DNA of 64,000 bases from the NCBI RefSeq assembly GCF_900100955.1, contig NZ_FNCC01000009.1:310001-374000 (forward strand), written 5' to 3'. Shown one piece after another: positions 11,978 through 42,727 of this stretch. The translations under genes and the position numbers were made by a program. This DNA is from Lentzea fradiae. Its GTDB lineage: Bacteria; Actinomycetota; Actinomycetes; Mycobacteriales; Pseudonocardiaceae. Below the pieces are notes generated by a model. That model ran no database searches and was not told the DNA's origin. It saw only the letters and a program-made list of their open reading frames with translations. The first letter of the stretch is position 1. Each line of letters starts with the position of its first letter.

Positions 11978-12631
11978 TCACTGGCCGTAGACGTTCTGGT
12001 AGCGCTCGTAGAGCCGGTCGACGTGCTCCTGGGCGATGACGTCGGGCTTGCCGAGCTGGAGTGCGAAGTGGACGGTGCGGGCGACGTCCTCCAGCAGCAC
12101 CGCGGCCTTCACCGCGGCACGGGCCGTCGCGCCCACGGTGAACGGGCCGTGGTTGCGCATCAGCACCGCCGGGGACCGGCTGGCGCTCAGCGTCTCGACG
12201 ATCCCCTTGCCGATCGAGTCGTCGCCGATCAGGGCGAACGGCCCGACCGGGATGTCGCCGCCGAACTCGTCCGCGATCATCGTCAGCACGCACGGGATGG
12301 GCTCACCGCGGGCCGCCCACGCTGTGGCGTAAGGGGAATGCGTGTGCACGACACCGCCGACGTGCGGCATGTGCCGGTACACGTAGGCGTGCGCGGCGGT
12401 GTCGGAGGACGGCGCCAGCTCCCCCTCCACCAGCTTGCCGTGCAGGTCCGTCACGACCATCGCGTGCGGTCCCAGCTCGTCGTAGGACACACCGGACGGC
12501 TTGATCACCATCAGGTCCTGGTCCGGGACGCGCGCCGACACGTTGCCCGCCGTCCAGGTGACCAGCTCGTAGCGGGTCAGCTCGCGGTGCAGCTCGGCGA
12601 CAGTGCGGCGCAGCTCCGTCGTGGCGGACAT
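11978..12631 (-). CDS. araD: L-ribulose-5-phosphate 4-epimerase
   Basis: Converts L-ribulose 5-phosphate to D-xylulose 5-phosphate, delivering arabinose carbon to the pentose phosphate pathway. The 217 residues are typical of class II aldolase/epimerases. It has GNVSARV, IKPSGV, the zinc-binding [12 protein letters not shown] and a further NHGPF histidine. Its ATG shares one base with the araB stop (TGATG), indicating translational coupling. Confidence 0.95.
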
Positions 12632-14313
12632 CAGCTCTTCCTCTCCAGGGCGTCGCGCCGGTAGCCGCGCAGCCGGTGCATGACGTCGTTCGCGCCGCGG
12701 CCGAAGTAGTCGTGCAGTTCCTGGTACTCCAGGAAAAGCCGTTCGTACGCCTCGACGTTCTCCGGGATCGGCGTGAAGGCGTTGTGCCGCACCGAACCCA
12801 TCGCCGCGGCCGCCGCGCGGATGTCCGGATAGGACCCGGCGGCCACCGCGGCGTGCATCGCGGACCCGAGCGCGGGCCCCTGCGCGGAGCCGATGACCGA
12901 CAGCGGCAGGTTCACGACGTCGGCGTAGATCTGCATCAGCAGGCGGTTCTTCATCAGCCCGCCCGCGATCACCAGCTCCGTGACCGGCACGCCCGCGTCC
13001 GTGAAGCCGTCGATGATGACCCTGGTGCCGAACGCCGTGGCCTCCAGCAGCGCGCGGTAGACGTCCTCCGCCTTGGTGGCGAGGGTCTGGCCGACGACCA
13101 CACCGGACAGCTCGTGGTCGACGAGCACGGACCTGTTGCCGCTGTGCCAGTCGAGCGCGATGAGCCCGTGCTCACCGACCTCCTGCCGGGCGGCCAGCTC
13201 GGAGAGCAGCTCGTGCACCGTGATGCCGCGTTCGGCGGCCTGCTCGTGGTAGGCGGGCGGCACCTGGTTGCGCAGGAACCACGCGAAGATGTCGCCGACG
13301 CCGCTCTGCCCGGCCTCGTAGCCCCACAGCCCCGGCACGATGCCGCCGTCGACGACGCCGCACATGCCCGGCACCTCGCGCAGCACGTCGCCGCTCATCA
13401 CGTGGCACGTGGACGTGCCCATGATCGCGACCATCTGGCCGGGCTCGACCGCCTGCGCGGCGGGCGCGGTGACGTGCGCGTCGACGTTGCCGACCGCGAC
13501 CGCGATCCCCTCCGGCAGCCCGGTCCACGCGGCGGCCTCGGCGGACAGCGAACCCGCCTTGTCCCCCAACGCCGACAACGGGTGGTCGAGCTTCTCGGCC
13601 ACGAAGTCCGCGAACGCGGGGTTCAGCTCCGCGAGGAAGTCCGCGCCGGGGTAGCCGCCGTCCTGGTGGATCCCCTTGTAGCCGGCGGTGCACGCGTTGC
13701 GCGTGTAGAGACCCGTGAGCTGCCAGACGATCCAGTCCGCGGCCTCCACCCAGTGCGTCATCGCCGCGTAGACCTCGGGTGCCTCCTCCAGCACCTGTAG
13801 CCCCTTGGCGAACTCCCACTCCGAGGAGATGAGCCCGCCGTAGCGCGGAAGCCACGACTCCTTGCGCTGCCGGGCCAGCTCGTTGATCCGGTCCGCCTGA
13901 CCCTGGGCCGCGTGGTGGCGCCACAGCTTCACGTAGGCGTGCGGGTTCTCGGCGAACTCCGGCAGCTCGCACAACGGCGTGCCGTCCCCGGTCACCGGCA
14001 CCATCGTGCAGGCGGTGAAGTCCGTGCCGATGCCGATCACCTGGTCCGCGGAGATCCCGGCCGCCTGGACGGCCTGCGGCACAGCGGTTCTCAGGACCTC
14101 GACGTAGTCGGAAGGCACCTGCAGCGCCCATTCCGGTGGCAACGGCCGGCCGGTCGCGGGCAGCACCTGGTCCACGACACCGTGCCGGTACTCGTGGACC
14201 GCCGTGCCGAGCTCGGCACCGTCGCGCACGCGCACGACCACGGCGCGACCGGACAGAGTGCCGAAGTCGACCCCCACCACACAGGCGTCGCGGTCGATCG
14301 TCTTGTCAGTCAC
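12631..14313 (-). CDS. araB: Ribulokinase
   Basis: An FGGY-family kinase that phosphorylates L-ribulose with ATP. GTG at 14313 gives 560 residues, the normal length. It starts just before VVGVDFGTLSGRAVVVRV, and an upstream extension has no family match. Other landmarks are GTDFTACTMVPV, the substrate region GLISSEWEFAKGLQV, GNVDAHVTAPAA and MGTSTCHVM. The C-terminal ATP-binding segment is VIAGGLMKNRLLMQIYADV. There is no good SD, and the likely -10 hexamer ends 7 bases before the GTG, so the mRNA may be leaderless. It heads the araBDA operon and is controlled by the operator at 14323-14334. Confidence 0.95.
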   Translation of the reverse strand: MTDKTIDRDACVVGVDFGTLSGRAVVVRVRDGAELGTAVHEYRHGVVDQVLPATGRPLPPEWALQVPSDYVEVLRTAVPQAVQAAGISADQVIGIGTDFTACTMVPVTGDGTPLCELPEFAENPHAYVKLWRHHAAQGQADRINELARQRKESWLPRYGGLISSEWEFAKGLQVLEEAPEVYAAMTHWVEAADWIVWQLTGLYTRNACTAGYKGIHQDGGYPGADFLAELNPAFADFVAEKLDHPLSALGDKAGSLSAEAAAWTGLPEGIAVAVGNVDAHVTAPAAQAVEPGQMVAIMGTSTCHVMSGDVLREVPGMCGVVDGGIVPGLWGYEAGQSGVGDIFAWFLRNQVPPAYHEQAAERGITVHELLSELAARQEVGEHGLIALDWHSGNRSVLVDHELSGVVVGQTLATKAEDVYRALLEATAFGTRVIIDGFTDAGVPVTELVIAGGLMKNRLLMQIYADVVNLPLSVIGSAQGPALGSAMHAAVAAGSYPDIRAAAAAMGSVRHNAFTPIPENVEAYERLFLEYQELHDYFGRGANDVMHRLRGYRRDALERKS

Positions 14314-14320: not shown

Positions 14321-14348
14321 GTGTTATCGCTAACAATCGGTGAGTCAA
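14321..14348 (-). promoter_or_regulatory. araB promoter with LacI-type operator
   Basis: Reading leftwards, TTGACT (14348-14343), a 16-base spacer and TAACAC (14326-14321) form a sigma-70-like promoter. The dyad GTTATCGCTAAC (14323-14334) covers the -10 and spacer. The same 12 bases in inverse orientation occur upstream of the LacI gene at 15840-15851. This is a classic repressor arrangement. Confidence 0.7.
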
Positions 14349-14792: not shown

Positions 14793-15806
14793 TCACCTCG
14801 GTGGCGGCGCCACACTTTCCCGCTTCACCAGCGTCGGTTCCACGGTCCGCCGCGGTGCCGCCGCTCCCCCGTCGCTGACCTGCTGCAACAGCAACCCCAG
14901 CGTCTCCCGCGCCACGGCGGCGAAGTCGGGGCGGACGGTGGTGAGCGGCGGGATGAAGTACGCCGCCTCCGGCACGTCGTCGAAGCCGACCACGCTGAGG
15001 TCGTGCGGCACGCGCCTGCCGCGTTCGCTCATCGCCCTCAGCAGGCCGAGGGCCAGGTGGTCGTTGGAGCAGAAGACGGCCGTCACCTCGGGCATCCTGG
15101 CGAGCATCTGCCCCGCCCGGTAGCCGGCGGCGGCGCTCCAGTCCGCCGTCACGACGGGCGGGACCTCGGCGTGCGCGGCTTCGAGCGCCTGGCGCCAGCC
15201 GTGGACGCGGCCGGCCGCGTCGAACCAGTCGGCGGGACCGGAGACGTGCCACACCGTCTCGTGGCCCGCCTCCAGCAGGTGCCGGGTGGCCTCGTACGCG
15301 CCCGCCGCCTGGTCGACCGTGACCAGCGGGGTGGGGCGGTCCGGGTCGCCGTCCACCGTCACGAGCGGGACGCCCGCCGGGACGTCGGCCAGGGCGTCGG
15401 CGGCGGACGAGGTGGGGGCGATGACGACGATGCCCGCCACCCGCTGGTCGCGGTGGCGTTCGACGGCGGCGGAGATGGACTCGCGGTCGAGCACCTTGAC
15501 CCTGCCGACGCTGACCGCGAACCCGGCCGCGGCCGCCGCCTCCTCGAAGGCGGACAGCAGCGAGGCCGGGCCGTACAGCGTCGAGTTCTGCGCCACCACG
15601 CCGATCAGCTGCGTCTTGCCGGTGACCAGGGCGCGGGCCGCCCGGTTGGGGCGGTAGTCCAGTTCCTTGATCGCCGCCTGCACGCGCAGCCTGGTCTGCT
15701 CCCGCACGTTCGGGTGGTTGTTGAGCACACGCGAGACCGTCTGGTGCGACACCCCGGCGAGTCGTGCGACATCGGTCATCGCGGGGTCACGCGACGTCTT
15801 CTCCAC
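14793..15806 (-). CDS. LacI-family repressor of arabinose genes
   Basis: A 337-residue repressor with HTH MTDVARLAGVSHQTVSRVL near the N-terminus, hinge NRAARALV and the sugar-binding core ending VVGFDDVPEAAYFIPPLTTVRPD. GTG at 15806 has CGGAGA about 7 bases upstream. It sits between araBDA and the GH51-GH43 genes on the same strand. Identical operators lie upstream of itself and araB, and related ones upstream of GH51 and the transporter. I infer that it is an autoregulated arabinose or arabino-oligosaccharide sensor. It is not a GntR-type AraR; the function rests on context. Confidence 0.85.
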   Translation of the reverse strand: MEKTSRDPAMTDVARLAGVSHQTVSRVLNNHPNVREQTRLRVQAAIKELDYRPNRAARALVTGKTQLIGVVAQNSTLYGPASLLSAFEEAAAAAGFAVSVGRVKVLDRESISAAVERHRDQRVAGIVVIAPTSSAADALADVPAGVPLVTVDGDPDRPTPLVTVDQAAGAYEATRHLLEAGHETVWHVSGPADWFDAAGRVHGWRQALEAAHAEVPPVVTADWSAAAGYRAGQMLARMPEVTAVFCSNDHLALGLLRAMSERGRRVPHDLSVVGFDDVPEAAYFIPPLTTVRPDFAAVARETLGLLLQQVSDGGAAAPRRTVEPTLVKRESVAPPPR

Positions 15807-15839
15807 TACGGTCTCCGATCTTCGATCTGCACCGGTGAT

Positions 15840-15851
15840 GTTAGCGATAAC
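15840..15851. promoter_or_regulatory. Operator upstream of the arabinose LacI gene
   Basis: GTTAGCGATAAC, the exact reverse complement of the araB operator at 14323-14334, 34 bases upstream of the LacI start. It overlaps a possible -10 (TAACAT on the minus strand). It implies autoregulation. Confidence 0.7.
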
Positions 15852-15886
15852 ACCTGGTCGGCATCGATGCAGTGCTCATTGTCCAC

Positions 15887-17329
15887 TCATCCGAGACGGA
15901 ATGTGGCCCTGCGGCGCGCTTGCTGGTCATTGTCAGGTTTCGAAACAACGAATCGACCCGTGTCGTGTGCGAGATAGGTGTCAGTCCCGACACGGAGCGA
16001 TACCGCTGAACTGTCACCCAGCCCCGAAATGCGAACAAAACTCGCAGCACGGCCATAGGCGTCCGAGTCTTCGAACGGGTCGATGCGAATCGACGACGAA
16101 TCCACGCGCACGTAGCGGTCCGGGTAGTTCACCGACTGCAACGAGACCGTGCCCGCACCGAGCAGCCCCGGCACGAACCGGAACTGCGTGTCGGCGAGCT
16201 CGCGGACGTTGCCGTCGACGCGCAGCCGGTAGTCGTAGTGCCGCACGAACAGCCCGGGCGCGTCGAGCGGCGACAACCGCACGATCGGCCCACCCTTGCC
16301 CACCGGTACGCCGAACGACGGTGTGCCGTCGGTGTTCCAGTGCAGCTGCTGCACGCGGGTGTGCCGGTTCGGGTCGAACAACGGGTCGCCGTTGATGTCG
16401 CGGTAGTCGCGCGAGTGGTAGACGAGCACGTCGGTGGACCCGACCGTGGTGAACGAGTTGTGCCCTGGACCGTACTGCGACGTCTGCACGTTGGTCGTGA
16501 ACACCGGGTTCGGCGACTTCGTCCACGACCGCGCGTCGAGCAGGTTCGCGTTCTCGTCCGCGGTCAGCAACCCCATGCAGTACCGGGAGTCGGTGGCGCT
16601 GGCCGAGAACGTCACGAAGACGCGGCCGTTGCGGACCAGCACCGCGGCTCCCTCGTTGACCTTGAACCCCTGCGTCTCCCACGACAGCGTCGGCGTGGCG
16701 ATCCGCACGGGCGCCGTCCGCAGCGCGAACGGTGAGGCCATCTCGGCGATGTAGAGGTTCGAGTTGGTGGCGATGCCGGGTTCGCTCTGCGCCCAGAGGA
16801 AGTAGCGCTTGCCGCGGTGCTCGAACGTGGTCGCGTCGAGGGTGAACGTGTCCCACGCCGTCACCATCTGGCCGCGCAGCACCCAGCCGCCCTCGCGCGG
16901 GTCGGCGTTCGGCGACTCCAGCACGTAGGTGCGGATGCGGAACGGGTCGTCCTTGTCCCCCGCGGCGAAGTAGACGTACCACCTGCCGTCGATGCGGTGC
17001 AGCTCCGGCGCCCAGATGTAGCCACCCATCCGGCCGGACGACGGCCTGCGCCAGATGGTGCGTTCCCGCGCGGAGGCCAGACCGTCCAGAGTGGACGCCC
17101 CGCGGATGACGACCCGGTCGTACTCGGGCACGGACCCGGTCAGGTAGTACATGCCGTCGGTCGGGGGCGTGATGAACGGGTCGGCGCGTTGTTCGACGAG
17201 CGGGTTGCGGGTCGGCAGCGCGGGGTCGGGTTCGGCAGCGGCGGCGGCACCTGCCGGTGCGGCGGACGCGAGCGCACCGGTCGCGGCGATGACGCCGCCC
17301 GTGCGCAGCAGGGATCGTCGGTTGATCAC
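15887..17329 (-). CDS. Secreted GH43 arabinanase/arabinofuranosidase with CBM42
   Basis: A 480-residue extracellular enzyme that should release arabinose from arabinan or arabino-oligosaccharides. A Tat-like signal (RRSLLRTGG, Ala-rich core) occupies about residues 1-32. The five-bladed propeller of GH43 has the catalytic-base motif RADPF (Asp50), GGYIWAPELHRI, and the acid motif KVNEGAAVL. Residues about 345-480 resemble an AbfB/CBM42 arabinose-binding module (SVNYPDRYVR, TDTYLAHD, ATFRLG). This layout matches exo-1,5-arabinofuranosidases of streptomycetes. Its GTG overlaps the GH51 stop in GTGA, so the two are translationally coupled. Confidence 0.88.
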   Translation of the reverse strand: MINRRSLLRTGGVIAATGALASAAPAGAAAAAEPDPALPTRNPLVEQRADPFITPPTDGMYYLTGSVPEYDRVVIRGASTLDGLASARERTIWRRPSSGRMGGYIWAPELHRIDGRWYVYFAAGDKDDPFRIRTYVLESPNADPREGGWVLRGQMVTAWDTFTLDATTFEHRGKRYFLWAQSEPGIATNSNLYIAEMASPFALRTAPVRIATPTLSWETQGFKVNEGAAVLVRNGRVFVTFSASATDSRYCMGLLTADENANLLDARSWTKSPNPVFTTNVQTSQYGPGHNSFTTVGSTDVLVYHSRDYRDINGDPLFDPNRHTRVQQLHWNTDGTPSFGVPVGKGGPIVRLSPLDAPGLFVRHYDYRLRVDGNVRELADTQFRFVPGLLGAGTVSLQSVNYPDRYVRVDSSSIRIDPFEDSDAYGRAASFVRISGLGDSSAVSLRVGTDTYLAHDTGRFVVSKPDNDQQARRRATFRLG

Positions 17330-19794
17330 GAGCGGCTCCTGATCCGGAGGAACGTGACGGAGTGCGGCGGAAACGTGTGGGTGAAGGTGCTCGCCACCCG
17401 CACCTGCCCGGTGCTCGGGCGGATCGGCTGGGTGAACTCGGTGTTCACGTCGTCGGGAAGGCCCTGCAGCACGGTCGCCCTGGCGGATGCGGACACCGGG
17501 ACGCCGAGCTCCACGCGGGTGCGGGCGGGACTGCCCTGGGCGTTGACGACCTTCACGACCAGCTCACCGGTGGCGGTGTCGCGGGTGACGACCTGGCGGA
17601 ACGGCTCGGCCACGCGGTCGTCGGTGAACTCGCCCCACTTCCGGCCGTCGAGGAAAAGCGCGACGTGCCGGCCGCGCACCTCGATCCGCACGTCGTAGGT
17701 GCGACCGGTGTCGACGCGGGTGCCGTCGGAGATCAGCGTGCTCTTGCCGCCGCCGGCGGCCTTCTCCACCGCCGACTGGGTGTTGTTCCAGCCACCCAGG
17801 TTCCACCAGTAGTGGTTGCCGGTGTCCTGCACGCCGAACGCGACGAGGAAGCCCTCGCGGCCGGACTGCTTGGTGGCCTTGACGTTCAGCGTGTAGTTCT
17901 GCCAGCTCCGGTCACCCGCCGTGACGAGCGTGTCCTCGGCGGCGGCGTCGGACTGGACGTAGGCGCCGTTGACGACGTTCCACGTGCCGCGGCCCGACTT
18001 GGTCCACCGCGAGTCGCCGCCGGAGAAGTCGTCGCTGAACAACGTCTCACCGGAGGCGCCGGTCACCGTCACGTCGTCATAGCTCGCGGCGGTCGCCCAG
18101 GTCGAAAGCCCGATGGCGCCGGTGATCGGCGTCCGGGTGGACGGGGTGGCGGTCGCGGTGCTCGGCACGACGTGGTCGCCCACGTTGGTCATGAAGAGCT
18201 TCTGCACCTCGTAGCTGGCCGAGCCCCACGACGCGTGGTTGTTGAACCAGATCATGTCCGGCCGCCACTGCACGTAGTCCTCGTTGGCCAGCAACGGCGC
18301 GTAGGAGGCGAGCTTGACGACGTCGGCGTTGCGTTCGAGGCCCGTCATGAACGCGGCCTCGCTCAGCGCGTTGAAGAACGTGTTGTCCTGGGAGGCGTAC
18401 TCGCCGAGGAACACCTTGGGGCCGTTGCGGTCGTACGAGTCGTAACGGTCGTTGTTCTCCAGGAACCAGCTCGGGCTGTTGTAGTAGTGCTCGTCGACCA
18501 TCTGCACCCCGGCCTGCCGGTTGAGCTGCCAGAGGCGGTCGAACGTGCCGCCGGCGTCGTCCGGGCCGGAGTTGCTCACCACGACGATGTCCGGGTACTT
18601 CGCGTTGATCGCCGCGCGGAACTCGGTGAAGCGGGCGAAGAACTCGTCCGGCAGGTTCTCCTCGTTGCCGACGGCGAGGTGGGTGAGCTTGAACGGCTCG
18701 GGGTGGCCCATCTCGGCGCGTTTGCGGCCCCACGTCGAGTCGGCGGGACCGTTGGCGAACTCGACCAGGTCGAGCGTGTCCTGGATGTGCCGTCGCAGCA
18801 ACGCCGGGTCGTCGGTGGCGCGGTTCTGGCCGCAGCCGGTGACCAGCGCGGGCACGACGGGCAGCGGCATCGCGCCGATGTCCTCGGCGAACTGGAAGTA
18901 CTCGAAGTAGCCGAGCCCGTAGGACTGGTTGTAGCCCCAGAAGTTCCAGTTCGTGGCGCGCTGCTCGACCGGGCCGATGGTGTCCTTCCACTGGTACGAA
19001 CGGCGGCGTTCGTAGTCCGGCGCGTCGTAGCCGTGGTGGCTGCCGGTGTTGACCAGGCAGCCGCCGGGGAACCGGACGAAGCCTGGCTTGAGCGCGGCGA
19101 TCTTCTCCGCGAGGTCGCGGCGCAGGCCGTGACCCTTGAACGTGTCGCGTGGCAGCAGCGAGACCATGTCCAGGCGCAGGGTGCCGGTGCCGTCGCCGGT
19201 CACCAGGAGCCGGCCGGTGGTCGTGGACCGCTTCGCGCGGATCGTGCCGGTGTAGCGGGTCCAGCCGTCACCGCGGACGTCGACGCGCACCGGGTCGCCC
19301 AGCGGCGTGCCGGCCGGGTCGGTGACGGTGGCGGTCAGCCTGGCCGTCCGGTCGGCGCGGGCCCAGACGGAGAAGTCGTAGTGCTGGCCCTTGGTGACGG
19401 CGATACCGCTGTTGTAGCCGGAGTTGATGACCCCGGCGGGCAGGCCGAGCTTCAGGTAGCGGCGGTTGCGCTCGTTGAGGCGGGCGTCGTCGTCGGCGAC
19501 GTCGACCGTGCCGCTGTGCGGTGCCCACGACGTCAGGCCGGTGTAGCCCGCGTTGTCGGCGGGGTCGTACTCGAACGACCGGTTCTGGACGAGCTCGGCG
19601 TACAGGCCGCCGTCGGCGGCGCGGTTGATGTCCTCGAAGAACACGCCGTACATCGAGTCGTCGATGGACGGGCCCGTCCTCGTGGTGTCGACTCGCAGGG
19701 TGTAGTCGGTCTCGACGGCGGCGCCGGAACCGGGAACGGCGACCAGGAGACTGGCCGCAAGAAGGGCGGACAACAGGGCGTGCGTGCGGTGCAC
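17326..19794 (-). CDS. Secreted GH51 alpha-L-arabinofuranosidase, multidomain
   Basis: Cleaves alpha-L-arabinofuranosyl side chains from arabinoxylan or arabinan outside the cell. GTG at 19794 has a strong GGGGGAGGA SD. Residues 1-26 are a signal peptide. A CBM4_9-like sandwich precedes the (beta/alpha)8 barrel. The acid/base is Glu378 in AVGNEEN and the nucleophile Glu465 in FLGEYAS. A LamG/DUF1080-like jelly roll (about residues 565-735, LFSDDFSGGDSRW) separates the barrel from the C-terminal beta domain typical of GH51, which ends PPHSVTFLRI. The 822-residue length is explained by this extra module. It heads a two-gene operon with GH43 and is divergent from the arabinose transporter. Confidence 0.92.
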   Translation of the reverse strand: MHRTHALLSALLAASLLVAVPGSGAAVETDYTLRVDTTRTGPSIDDSMYGVFFEDINRAADGGLYAELVQNRSFEYDPADNAGYTGLTSWAPHSGTVDVADDDARLNERNRRYLKLGLPAGVINSGYNSGIAVTKGQHYDFSVWARADRTARLTATVTDPAGTPLGDPVRVDVRGDGWTRYTGTIRAKRSTTTGRLLVTGDGTGTLRLDMVSLLPRDTFKGHGLRRDLAEKIAALKPGFVRFPGGCLVNTGSHHGYDAPDYERRRSYQWKDTIGPVEQRATNWNFWGYNQSYGLGYFEYFQFAEDIGAMPLPVVPALVTGCGQNRATDDPALLRRHIQDTLDLVEFANGPADSTWGRKRAEMGHPEPFKLTHLAVGNEENLPDEFFARFTEFRAAINAKYPDIVVVSNSGPDDAGGTFDRLWQLNRQAGVQMVDEHYYNSPSWFLENNDRYDSYDRNGPKVFLGEYASQDNTFFNALSEAAFMTGLERNADVVKLASYAPLLANEDYVQWRPDMIWFNNHASWGSASYEVQKLFMTNVGDHVVPSTATATPSTRTPITGAIGLSTWATAASYDDVTVTGASGETLFSDDFSGGDSRWTKSGRGTWNVVNGAYVQSDAAAEDTLVTAGDRSWQNYTLNVKATKQSGREGFLVAFGVQDTGNHYWWNLGGWNNTQSAVEKAAGGGKSTLISDGTRVDTGRTYDVRIEVRGRHVALFLDGRKWGEFTDDRVAEPFRQVVTRDTATGELVVKVVNAQGSPARTRVELGVPVSASARATVLQGLPDDVNTEFTQPIRPSTGQVRVASTFTHTFPPHSVTFLRIRSRS

Positions 19795-19815
19795 GGAATC
19801 CTCCCCCGCTCGGAA

Positions 19816-19830
19816 GTGAGCGTTAACATA
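19816..19830 (-). promoter_or_regulatory. GH51 promoter -10 and operator
   Basis: On the minus strand TATGTT (19830-19825) lies 18 bases after a TTGCCC -35-like hexamer. GTGAGCGTTAAC (19816-19827) overlaps it and matches the ara operator GTTAGCGATAAC at 10 of 12 positions. It probably belongs to the same LacI regulon. Confidence 0.55.
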
Positions 19831-19858: not shown

Positions 19859-19887
19859 TTGACGACACAGATGTGAACGTTCACTCT
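19859..19887 (+). promoter_or_regulatory. Transporter promoter with perfect dyad operator
   Basis: TTGACG (19859-19864), a 17-base spacer and CACTCT (19882-19887) face the transporter. The perfect 12-base dyad GTGAACGTTCAC (19873-19884) fills the spacer, so a bound repressor would block RNA polymerase. It differs from GTGAGCGTTAAC at the GH51 promoter by two bases. Confidence 0.6.
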
Positions 19888-19954: not shown

Positions 19955-20920
19955 GTGCTGAAGAAGATCACGACAGCCGTCAGCGTGGTCCTGCTGAGCG
20001 CGCTCACGGCCTGTGGCTCGGGAGGTGGTGGGGGCACCGGCTCGTCCGGCGACACCATCACGATGGGCTTCGCCCAGGTCGGTGCCGAGAGCGGCTGGCG
20101 CACCGCCAACACCAAGTCCATCCAGGACGAGGCGAAGGCCGCCGGCATCGACCTCAAGTTCTCCGACGCCCAGCAGAAGCAGGAGAACCAGATCAAGGCG
20201 ATCCGCTCCTACATCCAGCAGAAGGTGTCGGTGATCGCGTTCAGCCCCGTCGTGGAGACGGGCTGGGACACCGTGCTGCTGGAAGCCAAGCGCGCGAACA
20301 TCCCGGTCATCCTCACCGACAGGTCGATCGACTCGGACGACACCTCGCTGTACAAGACGTTCCTCGGCTCGGACTTCGTCGAGGAGGGCCGCAGGGCGGG
20401 CGACTGGCTCGTGGCCAACGTGAACGGCCCGACGAACGTGGTGGAGCTGCAGGGCACCACCGGCGCCGCGCCGGCGATCGACCGCAAGAAGGGCTTCGAG
20501 GAGAAGATCGCCGCCAAGCCCGACATCAAGGTCGTGGCGTCGCAGACCGGTGACTTCACGCGGTCCGGCGGCAAGCAGGTCATGGAGGCGTTCCTCAAGT
20601 CCCAGCCGCAGATCGACGTCGTCTACGCGCACAACGACGACATGGGCCTCGGCGCCATCGAGGCGATCAAGGCCGCGGGCAAGGTGCCCGGCAAGGACAT
20701 CAAGATCATCACCGTGGACGCGGTGAAGGACGGCATGACCGCGCTGGCCAACGGCGAGATCAACTTCATCGTCGAGTGCAACCCGTTGCTGGGCAAGCAG
20801 CTGATGGAGCTCGCGAAGAAGGTCGTCGCGGGCGAGGAGGTGCCGGCGCGGGTCGTCACCGAGGAGGGCACCTTCACCCAGGAGCAGGCCAAGGAAGCGC
20901 TCCCGAACCGCCAGTACTGA
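19955..20920 (+). CDS. ytfQ: Sugar ABC transporter binding lipoprotein, YtfQ-like
   Basis: An extracytoplasmic sugar-binding lipoprotein of 321 residues. GTG at 19955 has GGAGGA upstream. The signal peptide ends in the lipobox LTAC (Cys20). The body follows E. coli YtfQ closely in remembered motifs: GFAQVGAESGWRTANTKSI, DAQQKQENQIKAIRS, VVETGWDTVLLEAKRA and GEFTR-like TGDFTRSGGKQVMEAFL. YtfQ binds galactofuranose and arabinofuranose-type sugars. Next to GH51, GH43 and araBDA, arabinose or an arabinofuranosyl product is the likely ligand here. First gene of the importer operon, followed by a strong hairpin that may favour its expression over the membrane genes. Confidence 0.9.
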   Translation: MLKKITTAVSVVLLSALTACGSGGGGGTGSSGDTITMGFAQVGAESGWRTANTKSIQDEAKAAGIDLKFSDAQQKQENQIKAIRSYIQQKVSVIAFSPVVETGWDTVLLEAKRANIPVILTDRSIDSDDTSLYKTFLGSDFVEEGRRAGDWLVANVNGPTNVVELQGTTGAAPAIDRKKGFEEKIAAKPDIKVVASQTGDFTRSGGKQVMEAFLKSQPQIDVVYAHNDDMGLGAIEAIKAAGKVPGKDIKIITVDAVKDGMTALANGEINFIVECNPLLGKQLMELAKKVVAGEEVPARVVTEEGTFTQEQAKEALPNRQY

Positions 20921-21015: not shown

Positions 21016-22551
21016 ATGACCGAGTCACCGCCGCCTGTCGTCGAGATGCGGGGCATCAGCCTCGCGTTTCCCGGCGTGAAGGCGTTGCAGGACGTCGACT
21101 TCCGGCTGTTCCCCGGCGAGGTGCACGCCCTCATGGGCGAGAACGGCGCCGGGAAGTCCACCCTGATCAAGACGCTGACCGGCGTGCACCGCCCGGACAG
21201 CGGCCAGGTCTCGCTGGCGGGCGAGGACGTGGCGTTCTCCTCCCCCGGCGAGGCCCAGCAGGCCGGGATCAGCACGGTCTACCAGGAGGTCAACCTCTGC
21301 GCGAACCTCTCGGTCGCGGAGAACATCCTGCTCGGCCGTGAGCCTCGGAAGCTGGGCGGCATCGACTTCCCGGCGATGCGCACGCGCGCGGCCGAGGTGC
21401 TCGCGCGCATCGGCGTGCACATCGACCCTGGGTCGAGCCTCGGCGAGCACCCGATCGCCGTGCAGCAGCTGGTCGCCATCGCCAGGGCCATCGCGGTCGA
21501 CTGCCGCGTGCTGGTGCTCGACGAGCCGACGTCGAGCCTCGACGCGGGCGAGGTCGCCGAGCTGTTCCGGATCATGCGGGTGCTGCGCGACGAGGGTGTC
21601 GCGATCCTGTTCGTGTCGCACTTCCTCGACCAGGTCTACGAGATCTCCGACCGGATGACGGTGCTGCGCAACGGGGCGCTCGTCGGTGAGCACCTCACCG
21701 CGGACGTCGACCGGCGCACGCTCATCGCGCAGATGATCGGCCGCGACCTCGGCGCGCTGGAGGCGATCGAGGACGCGGCGGAGAAGCACCAGGTCGAGGG
21801 ACCCGTGCTCGTGCGGGCCGAGGGCCTGGGCAAGCGCGGCGCCATCGAGCCGTTCGACCTGGACATCCGCTCGGGCGAGGTGGTCGGGCTGGCCGGGTTG
21901 CTCGGCTCCGGCCGCACCGAGCTCGCCCGGCTGCTCTTCGGCGCGGACCGCGCGGACTCCGGAACCCTGCTGGTGGACGGGAAGCCGGTGAAGCTGCGCG
22001 GGCCTCGGTCGGCCATCGCGGCGGGCATCGCGTTCAGCTCCGAGGACCGCAAGGGCGAGGGCCTCGTCGCGGACCTCTCGATCCGCGACAACCTGGTGCT
22101 CGCGATGCAGGCGGCCCGTGGCTGGACCCGCCCGCTGCCGCGCAGGACGAAGGACCAGCTCGTCGAGAAGTACCTGAAGGCGCTGGACATCCGGCCGGCC
22201 AACCCGGACGCGCTGGTGCGCACCCTGTCCGGCGGCAACCAGCAGAAGGTGCTGCTGGCGCGGTGGCTCGTCACCGAGCCGCGGCTGCTGATCCTCGACG
22301 AGCCCACCCGCGGCATCGACATCGGCGCCAAGGCCCAGATCCAGCAGCTCGTCACGACGCTGGCCGCCGAGGGCACCGCCGTGCTGTTCATCTCGGCGGA
22401 GCTGGAGGAGGTCGTGCGCATCGCGGACCGGATCGTCGTGCTGCGCGACCGCCGCAAGATCGCCGAGCTGGACGGCTCGACCGGCGTGGACGAGGTGGTC
22501 GAGCTCATCGCGGGCGGGGCCGCCCCCGAACCGGAGAAGGTGGTGTCGTGA
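21016..22551 (+). CDS. ytfR: Sugar ABC transporter ATPase, YtfR-like (two ABC domains)
   Basis: A 511-residue fused ATPase that powers the pentose/furanose importer. The first domain has Walker [11 protein letters not shown]-loop VYQEVNL and Walker B VLVLDEPTSS; its signature region is atypical (IAVQQLVAIARA), as usual in this CUT2 class. The second domain has the degenerate P-loop GLLGSGRTELARLLFG, signature [15 protein letters not shown] and [11 protein letters not shown]. This pattern is normal for YtfR/RbsA. The SD is weak. It is followed 31 bases later by the first permease. Confidence 0.93.
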   Translation: MTESPPPVVEMRGISLAFPGVKALQDVDFRLFPGEVHALMGENGAGKSTLIKTLTGVHRPDSGQVSLAGEDVAFSSPGEAQQAGISTVYQEVNLCANLSVAENILLGREPRKLGGIDFPAMRTRAAEVLARIGVHIDPGSSLGEHPIAVQQLVAIARAIAVDCRVLVLDEPTSSLDAGEVAELFRIMRVLRDEGVAILFVSHFLDQVYEISDRMTVLRNGALVGEHLTADVDRRTLIAQMIGRDLGALEAIEDAAEKHQVEGPVLVRAEGLGKRGAIEPFDLDIRSGEVVGLAGLLGSGRTELARLLFGADRADSGTLLVDGKPVKLRGPRSAIAAGIAFSSEDRKGEGLVADLSIRDNLVLAMQAARGWTRPLPRRTKDQLVEKYLKALDIRPANPDALVRTLSGGNQQKVLLARWLVTEPRLLILDEPTRGIDIGAKAQIQQLVTTLAAEGTAVLFISAELEEVVRIADRIVVLRDRRKIAELDGSTGVDEVVELIAGGAAPEPEKVVS

Positions 22552-22582: not shown

Positions 22583-23566
22583 ATGAAGAACCGGCTGCTC
22601 TGGCCGCTCCTGGCCCTCGTGGCCCTGCTGCTGCTCAACCTGGTCGTCACCCCGTCGTTCTTCTCCTTGCGGGTGCAGGACGGCCACCTCTACGGCGGCC
22701 TGGTCGACGTCCTCAAGAACGGCGCGCCGACCCTGCTGATCGCCCTCGGCATGACGCTGGTCATCGCCACCAGGGGCATCGACCTGTCGGTCGGCGCGGT
22801 GGCCGCCATCGCGGGCGCCGTCGCGTGCGTCCACATCGGAACCTCCGACAGCGCGGGAACGGCCATCGTGGGCATGGTGCTCGCGCTGGCGCTCTGCGCG
22901 CTGCTGGGGCTGTGGAACGGGTTCCTGGTGGCGGGCCTGGGCATCCAGCCCATCATCGCCACCCTGGTGCTGATGACAGCGGGCCGCGGTGTCGCCATGC
23001 TGGTGACCGAGGGCCAGATCGTCACGGTCAACAACACCGCCTACAAGCAGGTCGGCGCCGGGTTCGTGGTCCTGCCGACCGCGATCCTGATCGCCCTGCT
23101 GGTGCTGGGCGTCGTCGCGTTCGTGACGCGGCGGACCGCGCTGGGCATGCTGATCGAGGCCGTCGGCGTGAACCCGGAGGCGTCCCGGCTCGCCGGGGTG
23201 CGCTCCCGCACGATCATCTGGACCGTCTACGTGTTCGCCGCCGTGTGCGCGGGCATCGCCGGGCTGATGATCAGCTCGAACGTGAGCGCCGCCGACGCCA
23301 ACAACGCCGGGCTGTGGATCGAGATGGACGCCATCCTCGCCGTCGTCATCGGCGGCACGTCGCTCGCGGGCGGGCGGTACTCGCTCACCGGGACGCTGCT
23401 CGGCGCCCTGATCATCCAGACCCTCACCACCACCGTCTACACGATCGGCGTCGCACCGGAGGTGACGCTCGTCTTCAAGGCGGTCGTCGTCATCGCCGTG
23501 TGCCTGGTGCAGGCGCCGAAGGCCCGTGCGGCACTGAGCTTCCGGAAGGTGGCCGTCCCGTCATGA
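22583..23566 (+). CDS. ytfT: Sugar ABC transporter permease, YtfT-like
   Basis: A 327-residue inner-membrane subunit with eight to ten hydrophobic helices and no signal peptide. The CUT2 motif TRGIDLSVGAVAAIAG and the late ILAVVIGGTSLAGGRYSLTGTLLGA are present. ATG at 22583 follows AGGAGG at 8 bases. It overlaps the second permease in ATGA, so the pair is co-translated and should form the heterodimeric channel of the arabinose/galactofuranose-type importer. Confidence 0.92.
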   Translation: MKNRLLWPLLALVALLLLNLVVTPSFFSLRVQDGHLYGGLVDVLKNGAPTLLIALGMTLVIATRGIDLSVGAVAAIAGAVACVHIGTSDSAGTAIVGMVLALALCALLGLWNGFLVAGLGIQPIIATLVLMTAGRGVAMLVTEGQIVTVNNTAYKQVGAGFVVLPTAILIALLVLGVVAFVTRRTALGMLIEAVGVNPEASRLAGVRSRTIIWTVYVFAAVCAGIAGLMISSNVSAADANNAGLWIEMDAILAVVIGGTSLAGGRYSLTGTLLGALIIQTLTTTVYTIGVAPEVTLVFKAVVVIAVCLVQAPKARAALSFRKVAVPS

Positions 23567-24525
23567 CCGCTCTCTCCCAGCGGGTGCCGTCGCGGTTCCT
23601 GCCCGTCATCGCGACCGTCGTGCTGTTCGTCCTCGCCTTCGGCGCCGGGTCGGCGCGCTACGACGGCTTCGCGTCCGGCCAGGTGATCGCGAACCTGTTC
23701 ATCGACAACGCCTTCCTCATCGTGCTCGCCGCGGGCATGACGTTCGTGATCCTCAGCGGCGGCATCGACCTGTCCGTCGGCTCCGTCGTCGCGCTGTCCA
23801 CGATGGTCACCGCCGCCGGGCTGCGCGCGGGCTGGCCGGTGCCGCTGGTGGTGCTGGCGGTGCTGCTCATCGGCTCCACGCTCGGGCTGCTGATGGGGAT
23901 CGTGATCCACAAGTTCGACATCCAGCCGTTCATCGTGACGCTGGCGGGCATGTTCCTGGCCCGCGGCCTGTGCTTCCTGATCAGCGTCGAGTCGGTGTCG
24001 ATCAAGAACAGCACGTTCCGCGACGTCGCCACGGCCGCGATCGAGCTGCCCGGCGGCGTCACGATCACCTACAACGTGGTGATCGCACTGGTCGTCGTCG
24101 CCGTCGCGGTGTACGTCCTGCACCGCACCCGCTTCGGCCGCACCGTCTACGCCGTCGGCGGCAACGAGTCGTCCGCGCTGCTGATGGGCCTGCCCACCGC
24201 ACGCACGAAGGTCGGCGTCTACGTGATCAGCGGCTTCTGCTCGGCGTTGGCGGGCCTGCTGTTCAGCCTCTACATGCTGTCCGGCTACGGCCTGCACGCC
24301 GTCGGCATGGAGCTGGACGCCATCGCGGCCGTCGTGATCGGCGGAACGCTGCTGGCGGGTGGCGTCGGGTACGTGCTCGGCGGCGTCGTCGGCGTCCTCG
24401 TGCTCGGCACGATCCAGACGCTGATCTCGTTCCAGGGCACGCTCAGCTCGTGGTGGACGAAAATCGTGATCGGCGTCCTGCTGCTGGTGTTCATCGCCGT
24501 GCAGCGGACTATGGTTCGGCGGTGA
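23563..24525 (+). CDS. yjfF: Sugar ABC transporter permease, YjfF-like
   Basis: A 320-residue partner permease with the paired CUT2 motifs LSGGIDLSVGSVVALS and IAAVVIGGTLLAGGVGYVLGG. ATG at 23563 overlaps the upstream stop (ATGA), and its own stop overlaps the GTG of the following expansin gene. Probably supplies the second half of the transport channel. Confidence 0.92.
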   Translation: MTALSQRVPSRFLPVIATVVLFVLAFGAGSARYDGFASGQVIANLFIDNAFLIVLAAGMTFVILSGGIDLSVGSVVALSTMVTAAGLRAGWPVPLVVLAVLLIGSTLGLLMGIVIHKFDIQPFIVTLAGMFLARGLCFLISVESVSIKNSTFRDVATAAIELPGGVTITYNVVIALVVVAVAVYVLHRTRFGRTVYAVGGNESSALLMGLPTARTKVGVYVISGFCSALAGLLFSLYMLSGYGLHAVGMELDAIAAVVIGGTLLAGGVGYVLGGVVGVLVLGTIQTLISFQGTLSSWWTKIVIGVLLLVFIAVQRTMVRR

Positions 24526-25358
24526 GACGCACCGGTCCCCTCCTGTTCGTCCTGGTCGCACTCCTGGCGGTGCTCGGTGTGGCGGTGCTGCGCGACCCGC
24601 CGGGCGTCGCCGGCGCACCCGTGGCCGCCGCGTCGCCCGCTGCCGAGACGACCACCCCCGAGACGACCACCCCGGTCCCCACCACTCCACCGGTCACCAC
24701 GACCACCACCACGCAGGCTCCTCCCCCGGCGCCGGTCGCGGCTCCTCTCGCCAGGAAGATCAAGCCCGGCGAGGAGCGGACCGGCGTCGCGACGTTCTAC
24801 GACTCCGACGGCGGCGGCGCCTGCTCGTACGACCCCGGACCGGACCCGCTGACCGCGGCGATGAACGAGACCGACTACGACAACGCCGCCGCCTGCGGCG
24901 CGCACGTGCGGGTGGAGCACGGCGGCAAGAGCATCACCGTCCGGATCACCAACCTGTGCCCCGCGCCCTGCCGTCCCGGCCAGCTCGACCTGAGCGCGGA
25001 GGCGTTCGCGCAGCTCGCGGCGCCCGTCCAGGGCGAGGTCCCGATCACCTGGACGCTCGTGAGCCCGCAGACCTCCGAGAAGGTCGCGATCCGCTACAAG
25101 ACCGGCTCCAGCCAGTGGTGGTGCGGCATCCAGGTGCTCGGCCACCGCAACCCAGTGGCACGGCTGGAGGTCCAGGCGGGCGGGCAGTGGCGGGAGCTGA
25201 ACCGCGCCCAGTACAACTACTTCCTGTCCGAGTCGGGCGCGGGCTGCGGTGGCGCGCTGGCGGTCACCGACGTCTACGGCGAGAGGCTGGAACTGGGCGC
25301 GCTGCCCGTGCGGCCCGGCGTCGTCCAGCCCACGAACGGGCAGTTCACCGCCCGCTGA
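24522..25358 (+). CDS. Secreted bacterial expansin-like protein (DPBB + CBM63-type)
   Basis: A 278-residue exported protein. GTG at 24522 overlaps the permease stop (GTGA). An N-terminal hydrophobic segment (LLFVLVALLAVLGVAVL) is followed by a Thr/Pro-rich linker to about residue 85. A double-psi beta-barrel follows (GVATFYDSDGGGACSY, AACGAHVRV, VRITNLCPAPCRPGQLDLS) with the conserved Asp of QLDLS. The C-terminal domain (VAIRYKTGSSQWWCGIQVLGHRNPVARLEV) resembles the aromatic cellulose-binding face of YoaJ/EXLX1. Expansins loosen cellulose-hemicellulose contacts without hydrolysis. Its coupling to a sugar importer is unusual and suggests induction by arabinose-containing wall material. Confidence 0.85.
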   Translation: MRRTGPLLFVLVALLAVLGVAVLRDPPGVAGAPVAAASPAAETTTPETTTPVPTTPPVTTTTTTQAPPPAPVAAPLARKIKPGEERTGVATFYDSDGGGACSYDPGPDPLTAAMNETDYDNAAACGAHVRVEHGGKSITVRITNLCPAPCRPGQLDLSAEAFAQLAAPVQGEVPITWTLVSPQTSEKVAIRYKTGSSQWWCGIQVLGHRNPVARLEVQAGGQWRELNRAQYNYFLSESGAGCGGALAVTDVYGERLELGALPVRPGVVQPTNGQFTAR

Positions 25359-27044: not shown

Positions 27045-28085
27045 CTACTTCTTGCCGTACAGGCGGAAGTAGGCGGGCTTCGGCTTCAGGTTCTCGTCGA
27101 AGAGGCAGGCCGCGTCCTCACCGGGGAACACGTCGGGCACCCACGAGTGCCGGTCGGTGAAGCCCCAGGTGGTGAACTCGACGCACCGCTTGACCGCGTG
27201 GCAGGCGTCCCATACGTTCCCGAAGTAGTCCGCCTGCGCCTTGAGCTTCTCCGGCGTCACGGGCAACGGGATGCGCACGTCCATCTCGGTGATGGCGACG
27301 TCCACGCCGAGGTCCGCGAACCGCTTGATGTTCTCCTTCACGCCCTGCGGGAAGTCGTACATCAGCGACAGGTGACCCTGGATGCCGACGCCGTGGATCG
27401 GGACGCCCTTGCGCTTCAACGACTTCACCAGCTCGTACGTGGCGTCGCTCTTGGGGTTGAGCCCCTCGATGTTGTAGTCGTTGATGTAGAGCTTGGCCTT
27501 CGGGTCGGCGGCGTGGGCCAGGCGGAACGCGTCGGCGATGTAGTCGTCGCCGAGCTTCGTCTGGAACACCGTCTCCCGGCGCGTGCCGTCCTCGTTGAAC
27601 GCCTCGTTGACGACGTCCCACGCCCTGATCTTACCGCGGTAGCGGCCGGCCTCGTCCGCGATGTGCTTGCGCACCACGGACTTCAGCTCCGCTGCCTCCA
27701 GGTCGGCGACCCAGTCGGGCAGCTGGCTGTGCCAGATCAGCGTGTGGCCCCTGATCGACTTGCCGGTCTTCTTGGCGTAGTCGACGATCGCGTCGGCACC
27801 GGACCAGTCGTACTGGCCGCGCACGGCCTCGACCGTGCCCCACTTCATCTCGTTCTCGGGCGTGACGCTGTCGAACTCGCGCGTCAGCACCTTCTTGTAG
27901 TCCGCCTCGGCGCTCAGGTGCTGGGCAGCCACCGCGCTGCCCACCCACCTGTTCGTCTTGCTGTGCAGCGGTCCACCGTGGTGCGGCGGTTCCGGGTGGT
28001 GGTGCCCCGGTCCCACCGCCGAGGCGGGGACGGCCTGGACGAGCATCACCACGGCGGCGATGCCTGCGGCTAATCGGGTTCGCAC
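27045..28085 (-). CDS. Secreted GH10 endo-1,4-beta-xylanase
   Basis: Hydrolyses the xylan backbone into short xylo-oligosaccharides. GTG at 28085 has AGGGAG upstream; the product is 346 residues with a signal peptide ending PASA. A natural His/Pro-rich stretch (GPGHHHPEPPHHGG) lies near the mature N-terminus. The GH10 barrel contains the acid/base Glu161 in DVVNEAF and the nucleophile Glu267 in ITEMDVR, with substrate motifs NEMKW, RGHTLIWHSQLP and HGVGIQGHL. No binding module is attached. It is the last gene of the xylobiose importer operon, 20 bases after the second permease. Confidence 0.95.
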   Translation of the reverse strand: MRTRLAAGIAAVVMLVQAVPASAVGPGHHHPEPPHHGGPLHSKTNRWVGSAVAAQHLSAEADYKKVLTREFDSVTPENEMKWGTVEAVRGQYDWSGADAIVDYAKKTGKSIRGHTLIWHSQLPDWVADLEAAELKSVVRKHIADEAGRYRGKIRAWDVVNEAFNEDGTRRETVFQTKLGDDYIADAFRLAHAADPKAKLYINDYNIEGLNPKSDATYELVKSLKRKGVPIHGVGIQGHLSLMYDFPQGVKENIKRFADLGVDVAITEMDVRIPLPVTPEKLKAQADYFGNVWDACHAVKRCVEFTTWGFTDRHSWVPDVFPGEDAACLFDENLKPKPAYFRLYGKK

Positions 28086-28105
28086 GATTTCACTCCCTTG
28101 TGAAG

Positions 28106-28921
28106 TCAGCCCTTGACCGAACCGGTGAGGCCACCGACCATGCGGCGTTCGGCGAGCACGAAGAACGTGAGCGCGGGAATCATGGACAACGCCGTGAAGG
28201 CCAGGACCTTCGCCGTGTCCTGCGTGTGTTCGGACTGGAACATCGCCACGCCCAGCGGCAGTGTGAAGTTCGTGGAGTCGTTGAACACGAGCAACGGCAG
28301 CAGGTAGAAGTTCCAGCTGGTGACGAACGCGAGCACGGACACCGTGATCAGCGCCGGCCGCGACAGGGGCAGCAGGATCCGCCAGAAGAAGCCGAGCTTC
28401 GCCGCTCCGTCGAGCAGCGCGGCGTCCTCCAGCTCGTTGGGGATCGCGTGCATGAACGGCCGCAGGATCACGATCGTCACCGGCAGCGAGAACGCCGCCT
28501 CCGGGATAGCGACGCCGAGCGGGTTCTCCAGCAGGTTCAGCTCGCGCAGCCACAGGTACAGCGGCAAGGTGGCCACGCCGAGCGGGAACAGCAGTCCGAG
28601 CGTGAAGAGCGTGTAGAACCCCTCACGGCCGCGGAACCGGTAGCGGGACAACGCGAACGCCGCCATCGAGCCGAGCACGACCGCGAGCGTCGTGGCGATC
28701 ACCGCGATCAGCGCGCTGTTGCCGAGCAGGCGCCAGAACACCGGCGAGCCTGCCACTTCCGCGTAGTTGTCCCACACGAACGGCGCCGGCAAGCCGGCAG
28801 GTGACGAGTTGATCTGCGCCGTGGTGCGGAAACCGCCCAGCACGACGAAGAGCAGTGGCACCACCGTCATGCCCACGACCGCGAACGCGGCGAGATAACC
28901 GATGGCGTTACGACGTGACAT
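28106..28921 (-). CDS. bxlG: Xylobiose-type ABC permease (MalG/BxlG class)
   Basis: A 271-residue membrane protein with six hydrophobic helices. The cytoplasmic EAA loop is NELEDAALLDGAAKLGFFWRILLPLSRPA, the contact site for the ATPase. ATG at 28921 lies one base from the upstream permease stop. With the partner permease and lipoprotein it forms a CUT1 importer. The gene name follows the Streptomyces bxl layout, inferred from neighbours. Confidence 0.88.
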   Translation of the reverse strand: MSRRNAIGYLAAFAVVGMTVVPLLFVVLGGFRTTAQINSSPAGLPAPFVWDNYAEVAGSPVFWRLLGNSALIAVIATTLAVVLGSMAAFALSRYRFRGREGFYTLFTLGLLFPLGVATLPLYLWLRELNLLENPLGVAIPEAAFSLPVTIVILRPFMHAIPNELEDAALLDGAAKLGFFWRILLPLSRPALITVSVLAFVTSWNFYLLPLLVFNDSTNFTLPLGVAMFQSEHTQDTAKVLAFTALSMIPALTFFVLAERRMVGGLTGSVKG

Positions 28922-28922
28922 C

Positions 28923-31168: not shown

Positions 31169-31223
31169 GGGAGGTCCACTCCTGACGACGTCGGCCGAGT
31201 TGGACTGCGTGTGTTGGGGCCAG

Positions 31224-31252: not shown

Positions 31253-31253
31253 T

Positions 31254-31283: not shown

Positions 31284-31290
31284 TGACCCC

Positions 31291-32304: not shown

Positions 32305-32314
32305 GGTCGTTCCT

Positions 32315-42726: not shown

Positions 42727-42727
42727 C

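What the first reader, a model, noticed from the sequence alone, without database searches (positions are those of the whole stretch)
24522..25358. Expansin gene translationally coupled to an arabinose importer
The GTG overlaps the permease stop. Bacterial expansins are usually alone or fused to cellulases. Coupling to a sugar importer implies wall-loosening is induced with uptake of hemicellulose or pectin sugars.
Basis: partly seen in the sequence, partly recalled or inferred. Interest (0 to 1): 0.58.

Follow-up and report, generated by a model that had tools for sequence, protein, structure and literature searches.

The report
Expansin inside an arabinose operon
A soil actinomycete carries a plant-wall-loosening protein gene as the last gene of its arabinose uptake operon, an arrangement shared by about half of its genus, so the sugar that signals plant hemicellulose may also switch on wall loosening.

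Summary
Confirmed: the GTG of an EXLX1-type expansin (24522-25358) overlaps the TGA of a sugar-ABC permease by GTGA. The permease is gafD/yjfF of a gafABCD (ytfQRT-yjfF) importer whose binding protein best matches a mycobacterial L-arabinofuranose/D-galactofuranose binder. The window also holds araBDA, a LacI-type regulator and arabinofuranosidase genes, with four related LacI-type palindromes at their promoters, so by position the expansin is in an arabinose regulon. Of 24 Lentzea genomes, 11 keep the gafD-expansin GTGA overlap; one has the pair 7 nt apart; three have this gaf type but no expansin; eight carry the expansin elsewhere; one has neither. No other genus sampled in the family has the pair (0 of 52 gafD genomes). 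In six of those eight the expansin overlaps, by the same GTGA, the stop of a CE2 esterase gene, twice behind a GH5 cellulase. So one expansin gene is last gene of two carbohydrate operons in sister lineages. GTGA overlaps are common (17-25% of neighbours). Coupling, induction and loosening are untested; three D1 residues important for creep in Bacillus EXLX1 differ. New variant of a known kind; moderate interest.

The parts
24522..25358 (+). EXLX1-type expansin: signal peptide or N-terminal anchor, Thr/Pro-rich linker (~35-75), double-psi barrel D1, D2 (CBM63 by recall)
24522..24525 (+). GTGA: expansin start codon overlapping the permease stop
23563..24525 (+). gafD/yjfF-type ABC permease
   Evidence: NF008630, 440 bits against cut-off 363
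22583..23566 (+). gafC/ytfT-type permease (ATGA overlap with gafD)
   Evidence: NF041862 best hit, 332 bits, below its cut-off 535
21016..22551 (+). gafB/ytfR-type double ATPase
   Evidence: NF041861 best hit, 671 bits, below its cut-off 850
19955..20920 (+). gafA/ytfQ-type sugar-binding protein
   Evidence: NF041827 best hit, 356.5 bits, below cut-off 510; PDB 6hbd 446.7 bits, 5ocp 303.5, 2vk2 285.1
19872..19885 (.). LacI-type palindrome TGTGAACGTTCACT on the gafA side of the divergent promoter region
19815..19828 (.). LacI-type site AGTGAGCGTTAACA on the GH51 side
17326..19794 (-). GH51-type alpha-L-arabinofuranosidase with signal-like start (a longer ORF starts at 19884)
   Evidence: Pfam ASD1_dom, Alpha-L-AF_C, CBM_4_9
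15887..17329 (-). GH43 with AbfB domain
15839..15852 (.). palindrome TGTTAGCGATAACA before lacI
14793..15806 (-). LacI-family regulator, likely of the arabinose genes
14322..14335 (.). palindrome TGTTATCGCTAACA before araB
12631..14313 (-). araB ribulokinase
   Evidence: TIGR01234, 843 bits
11978..12631 (-). araD-type L-ribulose-5-phosphate 4-epimerase
   Evidence: NF005123, 381 bits
10443..11945 (-). araA L-arabinose isomerase
   Evidence: NF002795, 790 bits
25412..25828 (+). F420H2-dependent quinone reductase-like gene; follows gafD directly in four genomes that have no expansin there (G003, G013, G004, G023)
   Evidence: PF04075
25848..26921 (-). CE2-type carbohydrate esterase, a neighbour of the expansin in many Lentzea loci (a longer ORF starts at 27032)
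   Evidence: CE2_N

Best explanation
The expansin is the fifth gene of the L-arabinose importer operon gafABCD-exp and is transcribed from the gafA promoter, which a LacI-type arabinose repressor probably controls together with araB, lacI and the GH51/GH43 arabinofuranosidases. When side-chain L-arabinofuranose is cut from arabinoxylan or arabinan outside the cell and taken up, the repressor is released and the whole set, expansin included, is made. The secreted (or N-terminally anchored) expansin then binds cellulose-hemicellulose junctions through D2 and loosens them, giving the arabinofuranosidases, the GH10 xylanase and the CE2 esterase better access. Shown: genes, overlap, conservation, operator-like palindromes, family membership. 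Inferred: one transcript, coupling of translation at GTGA, arabinose induction, secretion, loosening.
For: Overlap in 11 of 24 Lentzea genomes, adjacency in a 12th. gafA-type binding protein and araA-D-B, lacI, GH43, GH51, gafABCD in one stretch. One degenerate motif matches 4 sites in 64 kb, all in the ara/gaf stretch, none in 100 shuffles; both promoter-region sites recur in all 24 sequences aligned from 23 genomes, the GH51-side site being cut by the fragment's edge in 8 of them. No CebR box with up to 1 mismatch in the 10 named gaf-linked loci. Purifying selection on the expansin: median dN/dS 0.24 over 55 of 55 pairs. Equivalents of D82, W125, W126, Y157 and K119 are present (D156, W199, W200, Y231, K193; roles from PMC5072189 passages). 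In genome G001 (L108) the importer-expansin pair stands with lacI and a gene whose first residues match the window's araB, again with four such sites.
Against: No expression data. The motif was widened to fit the sites, so its zero expectation is optimistic, and similar sites lie before other sugar genes of the genome. GTGA overlaps are common (17-25%). The Shine-Dalgarno match before the GTG is weaker than the median but within the usual range (-4.5 kcal/mol for the sequence shared by the window, -3.2 to -7.0 in relatives; median -6.5 in 283 called genes), so dependence on upstream translation is not shown. Three of the 14 genomes of this gaf clade have no expansin after gafD. The equivalents of Thr14, Asp71 and Tyr73, which the review seen in passages lists as important for creep, are Y93, N144 and C146; Thr14 and Tyr73 are replaced likewise in 9ms5 and 4jcw, Asp71 is not.
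Confidence: 0.62

Rival explanations
1. Passenger: the expansin came to lie behind gafD by rearrangement of a CE2/GH5-linked expansin group; co-transcription is a by-product without selected link to arabinose.
For: CE2 lies about 0.5 kb from the expansin in 9 of 12 gaf-linked loci and directly beside it in seven of the others. In six genomes the same expansin overlaps the CE2 stop by GTGA. Sites without the expansin exist for both partners: gafD followed by the quinone-reductase gene in G003 and G013, GH5-CE2 without expansin in G011. GTGA overlaps are common.
Against: The gafD-expansin junction is present in 11 of the 14 genomes of the gaf clade while median expansin dS among them is 0.45, and one genome of the other clade has the same order.
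Confidence: 0.25
2. The expansin acts on the bacterium's own envelope or on other microbes (peptidoglycan) rather than on plant walls, and the sugar operon only sets its timing.
For: Two solved relatives are deposited under names with 'peptidoglycan-binding' (9ms5, 9ms4); three D1 residues important for creep in B. subtilis EXLX1 are replaced.
Against: Neighbours are plant-polysaccharide genes in both lineages; the residues that bind cellulose in B. subtilis EXLX1 are present.
Confidence: 0.08
3. The importer handles mainly D-galactofuranose, not arabinose.
For: NCBIfam names the family after galactofuranose; the residue aligned to the Shewanella Phe that possibly excludes galactofuranose is Asn52 here, as in the mycobacterial protein that binds both.
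Against: araBDA, arabinofuranosidase genes and shared palindromes alongside.
Confidence: 0.05

Closest known systems
EXLX1 bacterial expansins (Bacillus subtilis YoaJ, PDB 2bh0/3d30; 4jcw, Clavibacter by recall; 9ms5)
   Same: Both domains align; equivalents of D82, W125, W126, Y157 and K119 present
   Different: Thr/Pro-rich N-terminal linker; Thr14, Asp71, Tyr73 equivalents are Y93, N144, C146 (in a CPAPC stretch); last gene of an importer operon
exlx-gh5 operon of Erwinia tracheiphila and relatives (PMC7729394, abstract and passages)
   Same: Expansin presumed co-transcribed with a carbohydrate-active gene
   Different: There the partner is a GH5 with its own signal peptide, about 50 nt apart; here a membrane permease with a 4-nt overlap. 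Another Lentzea lineage has a CE2 esterase, twice behind GH5, as partner
GafABCD / YtfQRT-YjfF importers (Shewanella ANA-3, M. smegmatis MSMEG_1712; PMC10191376, abstract start and passages)
   Same: Four-gene importer, binding protein close to 6hbd/6hb0/6hyh, beside L-arabinose genes
   Different: An expansin gene follows gafD in 12 of 24 Lentzea genomes
CebR cellulose regulon of actinobacteria (PMC4898821, passages)
   Same: LacI-family control of wall-degrading genes; two CebR-type boxes lie before the expansin of L. atacamensis (L103)
   Different: The named gaf-linked loci have no such box within 10 kb; the palindromes of this window's ara/gaf promoters have another sequence

Membership tests
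EXLX1 expansin | Match to the EXLX1 model over both domains | tested here: met
   NF041144 235 bits, residues 88-275 over profile 1-193/194
EXLX1 expansin | Functional Asp82 of D1 | tested here: met
   D156, invariant in 18 aligned proteins
EXLX1 expansin | Cellulose-binding residues W125/W126/Y157 and K119 of D2 | tested here: met
   W199, W200, Y231, K193; the W199 position is W, Y or H in relatives, the other three are invariant in 18
EXLX1 expansin | Thr14, Asp71 and Tyr73 of D1 (creep in B. subtilis) | tested here: not met
   Y93, N144, C146. These are activity residues of one protein rather than family-defining: Thr14 and Tyr73 are also replaced in 9ms5 and 4jcw
EXLX1 expansin | Cellulose binding and non-hydrolytic wall loosening | not testable with these tools
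   needs protein
GafABCD importer | gafA-B-C-D gene set in order | tested here: met
   three of four subunits are best hits below NCBI's equivalog cut-offs
GafABCD importer | Furanose-binding gafA close to characterised members | tested here: met
   446.7 bits to 6hbd, 303.5 to 5ocp
GafABCD importer | Ligand binding | not testable with these tools
   needs protein
Arabinose regulon (LacI-type) | Shared operator-like sites before araB, lacI and at the gaf/abf promoters | tested here: met
   4 sites in the window, all in the ara/gaf stretch
Arabinose regulon (LacI-type) | Binding by the LacI protein and induction by arabinose | not testable with these tools
   needs a DNA-binding assay and RNA
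Translationally coupled gene pair | Conserved start-stop overlap with weak or no own ribosome site | tested here: inconclusive
   Overlap in 11 of 24 genomes; Shine-Dalgarno energy weak but within the usual range

The most novel reading that the evidence does not exclude
Regulon capture by a portable start: within one bacterial genus a single, probably vertically inherited expansin gene was attached, each time through the same GTGA start-stop overlap, to the end of two different carbohydrate operons, the arabinose importer in one lineage and a CE2 esterase operon (twice with GH5 cellulase) in the other. The cue for wall loosening would thereby differ between lineages: a hemicellulose side-chain sugar in one, possibly cellulose or mannan breakdown products in the other.
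Probability: 0.35. Interest if true: 0.55.

Novelty: new variant of a known kind. Interest (0 to 1): 0.42.

Why it matters
Which signal tells a saprophytic bacterium to make an expansin was not stated in the papers seen here, which deal mostly with plant pathogens and protein function. Here the gene order gives a directly testable answer, the side-chain sugar L-arabinose, and sister species with another partner gene offer a natural control. It also gives a setting in which an expansin belongs to a hemicellulose uptake system rather than to virulence.

Tried and rejected
An expansin paired with a sugar importer as a wider pattern: not found. Of 80 named loci only the 10 gaf-linked ones have gafD before the expansin (nine of the 80 have less than 7 kb upstream, and the expansin of L164 was not called). 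Three Amycolatopsis loci (L135, L153, L160) have a distant CUT2-like transporter starting about 5-6 kb downstream, and two Saccharothrix loci (L114, L119) have the expansin 127-242 nt, as called, behind an ABC ATPase gene that looks oligopeptide-type (not searched against a library). Neither is the same arrangement.

The idea that all expansins outside the gaf clade are under CebR: rejected. Boxes with up to 1 mismatch lie within 3 kb upstream of the expansin in 4 of 70 non-gaf-linked named loci (L103, L109, L127, L164; two of them Lentzea); in others they are downstream, farther away or absent.

A simple 'expansin moved from the CE2 operon to gafD' history: not decided. G001 lies in the other gaf clade yet has gaf copy-expansin-quinone reductase-CE2 in order, with its CE2 and quinone-reductase proteins on the other clade's side at modest support (0.769 and 0.787), while its expansin falls outside both groups. 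So the pairing may predate the split and have been lost. The expansin of G006 groups with the gaf-linked ones (0.787), its CE2 with the other lineage (0.915).

Remnants of a lost expansin: supported for G008 (14 of 21 bases after GTGA; 17 of 10000 shuffles reach it), marginal for G004 (11 of 21; 648 of 10000), none for G023 (8 of 21; 6306 of 10000) (best of six references, base-wise shuffles, so somewhat generous). The alignment meant to show this failed and was not used.

An early figure of 37 nt for the G001 gap (notebook, and the label ADJ37) was measured from the first matched residue; the ATG is 7 nt after the stop.

Structure prediction was not run; the sequence comparisons placed the protein well.

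Full report
OBSERVATION. The permease 23563-24525 ends in TGA 24523-24525, and the next gene starts GTG at 24522 and runs to 25358. NCBIfam calls the product an EXLX1-family expansin (235 bits, cut-off 100) and the permease YjfF (440 bits, cut-off 363). The own genome has one expansin over the cut-off; the second match covers only the first 104 of 194 profile positions, below the cut-off.

SURROUNDINGS. The importer is ytfQ-ytfR-ytfT-yjfF in type, a set that PMC10191376 proposes to rename gafABCD (passages seen). Three of the four subunits are best hits that stay below NCBI's equivalog cut-offs. The binding protein best matches the structures 6hbd, 6hb0 and 6hyh (about 446 bits), then 5ocp and 2vk2. 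The same paper says that the M. smegmatis protein (6hbd, 6hbm, 6hyh) binds L-arabinofuranose and D-galactofuranose, and that the Shewanella protein's failure to take galactofuranose is possibly due to a Phe. My alignment puts Asn52 there in the window, as in the mycobacterial protein (numbering inferred). On the other strand lie GH51 and GH43 arabinofuranosidase-type genes, a LacI-family regulator, and araB, araD and araA.

REGULATION. The GH51-gafA intergenic region holds two LacI-type sites that recur in all 24 sequences aligned from 23 genomes (G001 gives two copies; in 8 sequences the GH51-side site is cut by the edge of the fragment). A relaxed scan found related perfect palindromes just before araB and before lacI. 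One degenerate pattern covering all four has exactly four matches in 64 kb and none in 100 shuffles. Because the pattern was widened to fit the sites, that expectation is optimistic, but all four sit at promoters of the ara/gaf genes. In the whole genome a stricter pattern with one mismatch gives 14 forward and 6 reverse matches against 0 and 1 for the reversed control. Several lie before genes that look, from their first residues, like other sugar-ABC and glycosidase genes, so the motif is not specific to arabinose. The expansin, last in gafABCD-exp, leaves no intergenic space for a terminator before it.

CONSERVATION. Among 24 Lentzea genomes the permease is in 23 (E up to 1e-60). I count five states, all 24 accounted for: GTGA overlap of gafD and expansin in 11 (the window and 10); adjacent with 7 nt and a TAGGAG site in 1 (G001, one of two gaf copies); gaf of the same clade without an expansin after it in 3 (G004, G008, G023); expansin elsewhere in 8; neither in 1 (G019). 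Of 249 genomes drawn from the family, 68 have this permease (E up to 1e-80) and 23 an expansin (E up to 1e-25). Outside Lentzea that leaves 52 and 9; all 9 also have the permease, and in none of them do the listed coordinates put the two side by side. Among 14 gafD loci of other genera (L083-L096), other genes follow gafD, or none was called (L090); none shows the quinone-reductase gene. So the pairing arose within Lentzea or at its base, as far as sampled.

WHERE THE EXPANSIN SITS OTHERWISE. In 6 of the 8 'elsewhere' genomes the upstream neighbour is the CE2 esterase, whose stop overlaps the expansin's start by the same GTGA (L105, L111, L112, L113 and L017; L110; in L017 the CE2 frame is judged from its likeness to L111). 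In two of these (L105, L113) a GH5 gene overlaps the CE2 start in turn (GH5 by Pfam in L105; 91% identical in G003). In L. atacamensis (L103) the expansin stands behind two CebR-type boxes, one perfect and one with 1 mismatch, and faces a CE2 gene with a CBM2-like start. In L. indica the GH5-CE2 pair exists without the expansin (L278), and the expansin lies near a contig end elsewhere. Conversely gafD is followed by the quinone-reductase gene with no expansin between in G003 and G013. Thus both partners exist with and without the expansin. In the 12 gaf-linked loci CE2 lies about 0.5 kb downstream in 9, about 3.5 kb in L107, 7.7 kb in L106, and was not found in L102.

HISTORY. The gaf tree separates a clade of 14 genomes (11 overlapping, 3 without expansin; 0.994) from one of 8 plus both G001 copies (1.0); it is midpoint-rooted. 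The rpoB-region tree (23 of 24 genomes; G017 had no match) does not show the 14 as one clade: the window, G010, G016 and G023 form a group with G019 (0.959) that joins the other lineage at 0.207. I report that as a conflict. The expansin tree groups the gaf-linked proteins other than that of G001 (0.791) and the six CE2-linked ones (0.992); the CE2 tree is similar, with the exceptions for G001 and G006 told under Tried and rejected. This favours vertical inheritance with local rearrangement over repeated transfer, without proving it; the order of events is open.

IS THE COUPLING SPECIAL? Four-base overlaps are ordinary: 116 of 677 co-directional pairs as called and 168 of 677 possible (80 loci, my own gene caller). 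The ribosome-site match before the expansin is -4.5 kcal/mol for the sequence that the window shares, -3.2 to -7.0 in relatives, median -6.5 in 283 called genes. Coupling is plausible, not shown. The expansin is under purifying selection, median dN/dS 0.24 in 55 of 55 pairs of 11 gaf-clade sequences; gafD 0.11 (NG86, so dS is rough).

PROTEIN. By alignment to 2bh0, whose chain numbering fits that of the review, D82, W125, W126, Y157 and K119 correspond to D156, W199, W200, Y231 and K193 (roles from PMC5072189, passages). Thr14, Asp71 and Tyr73, listed there as important for creep, correspond to Y93, N144 and C146. The first and last replacement are also seen in 9ms5 and 4jcw, the change at Asp71 is not; 16 of the 18 aligned proteins of the genus have Asn there. 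Loosening should be assayed, not assumed. Whether the N-terminus is cleaved or stays as an anchor was not tested.

LITERATURE. Searches for bacterial expansin+operon+actinobacteria (2 papers), expansin+ABC transporter+Lentzea (0), microbial expansin/EXLX1/Streptomyces/horizontal gene transfer (17 by three of four terms, 15 listed), expansin/CebR/cellulose utilization/Streptomyces (24, 10 listed), bacterial expansin+arabinose (18, 15 listed), bacterial expansin/sugar transporter/gene cluster/operon (493 by three of four terms, 10 listed) and Lentzea+expansin (0) showed, in the titles and abstract starts listed, no report of an expansin in a sugar-importer operon. I opened five papers by passages and a sixth that had one relevant passage. 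The library holds open-licence papers only, so others may hold one. The nearest case seen is the exlx-gh5 operon (PMC7729394).

VERDICT. A real arrangement, seen in one genus, that makes the expansin part of an arabinose uptake operon by position. The mechanism is probably ordinary operon membership; the interest lies in the choice of signal and in the same gene having two different overlapping partners in sister lineages. New variant of a known kind, interest 0.42.

Noticed in passing
The two are sisters in the gaf tree.
   Followed up: partly
L103 9593 and 9755; L109 7382; L127 7597 and 7752: CebR-type boxes (all perfect but L103 9755, 1 mismatch) upstream of an expansin or of the gene preceding it, in Lentzea and Crossiella.
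   Followed up: partly
window 54584-54597: CebR-like box with one mismatch (CGGGAGCGCTCCCA) in the gap before the reverse-strand gene 52286-54514.
   Followed up: no
window 27045-34612: A second hemicellulose-like set beside the arabinose set: GH10, ABC importer genes and a GH3-like gene (both judged by eye), LacI-family regulator.
   Followed up: no
window 38198-47553: A further sugar importer with what look like L-rhamnose catabolic genes (judged by eye only).
   Followed up: no
L114 4824-10834, L119 4444-10606: Saccharothrix expansin gene 127-242 nt, as called, behind a run of ABC transporter genes that look oligopeptide-type: possibly a second importer-expansin association.
   Followed up: no
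L177 8298-8588 (G023): Only a fragment-length match to CE2 (57% over residues 253-354) after the quinone reductase in a genome without the expansin: perhaps decay of the expansin-CE2 pair.
   Followed up: no
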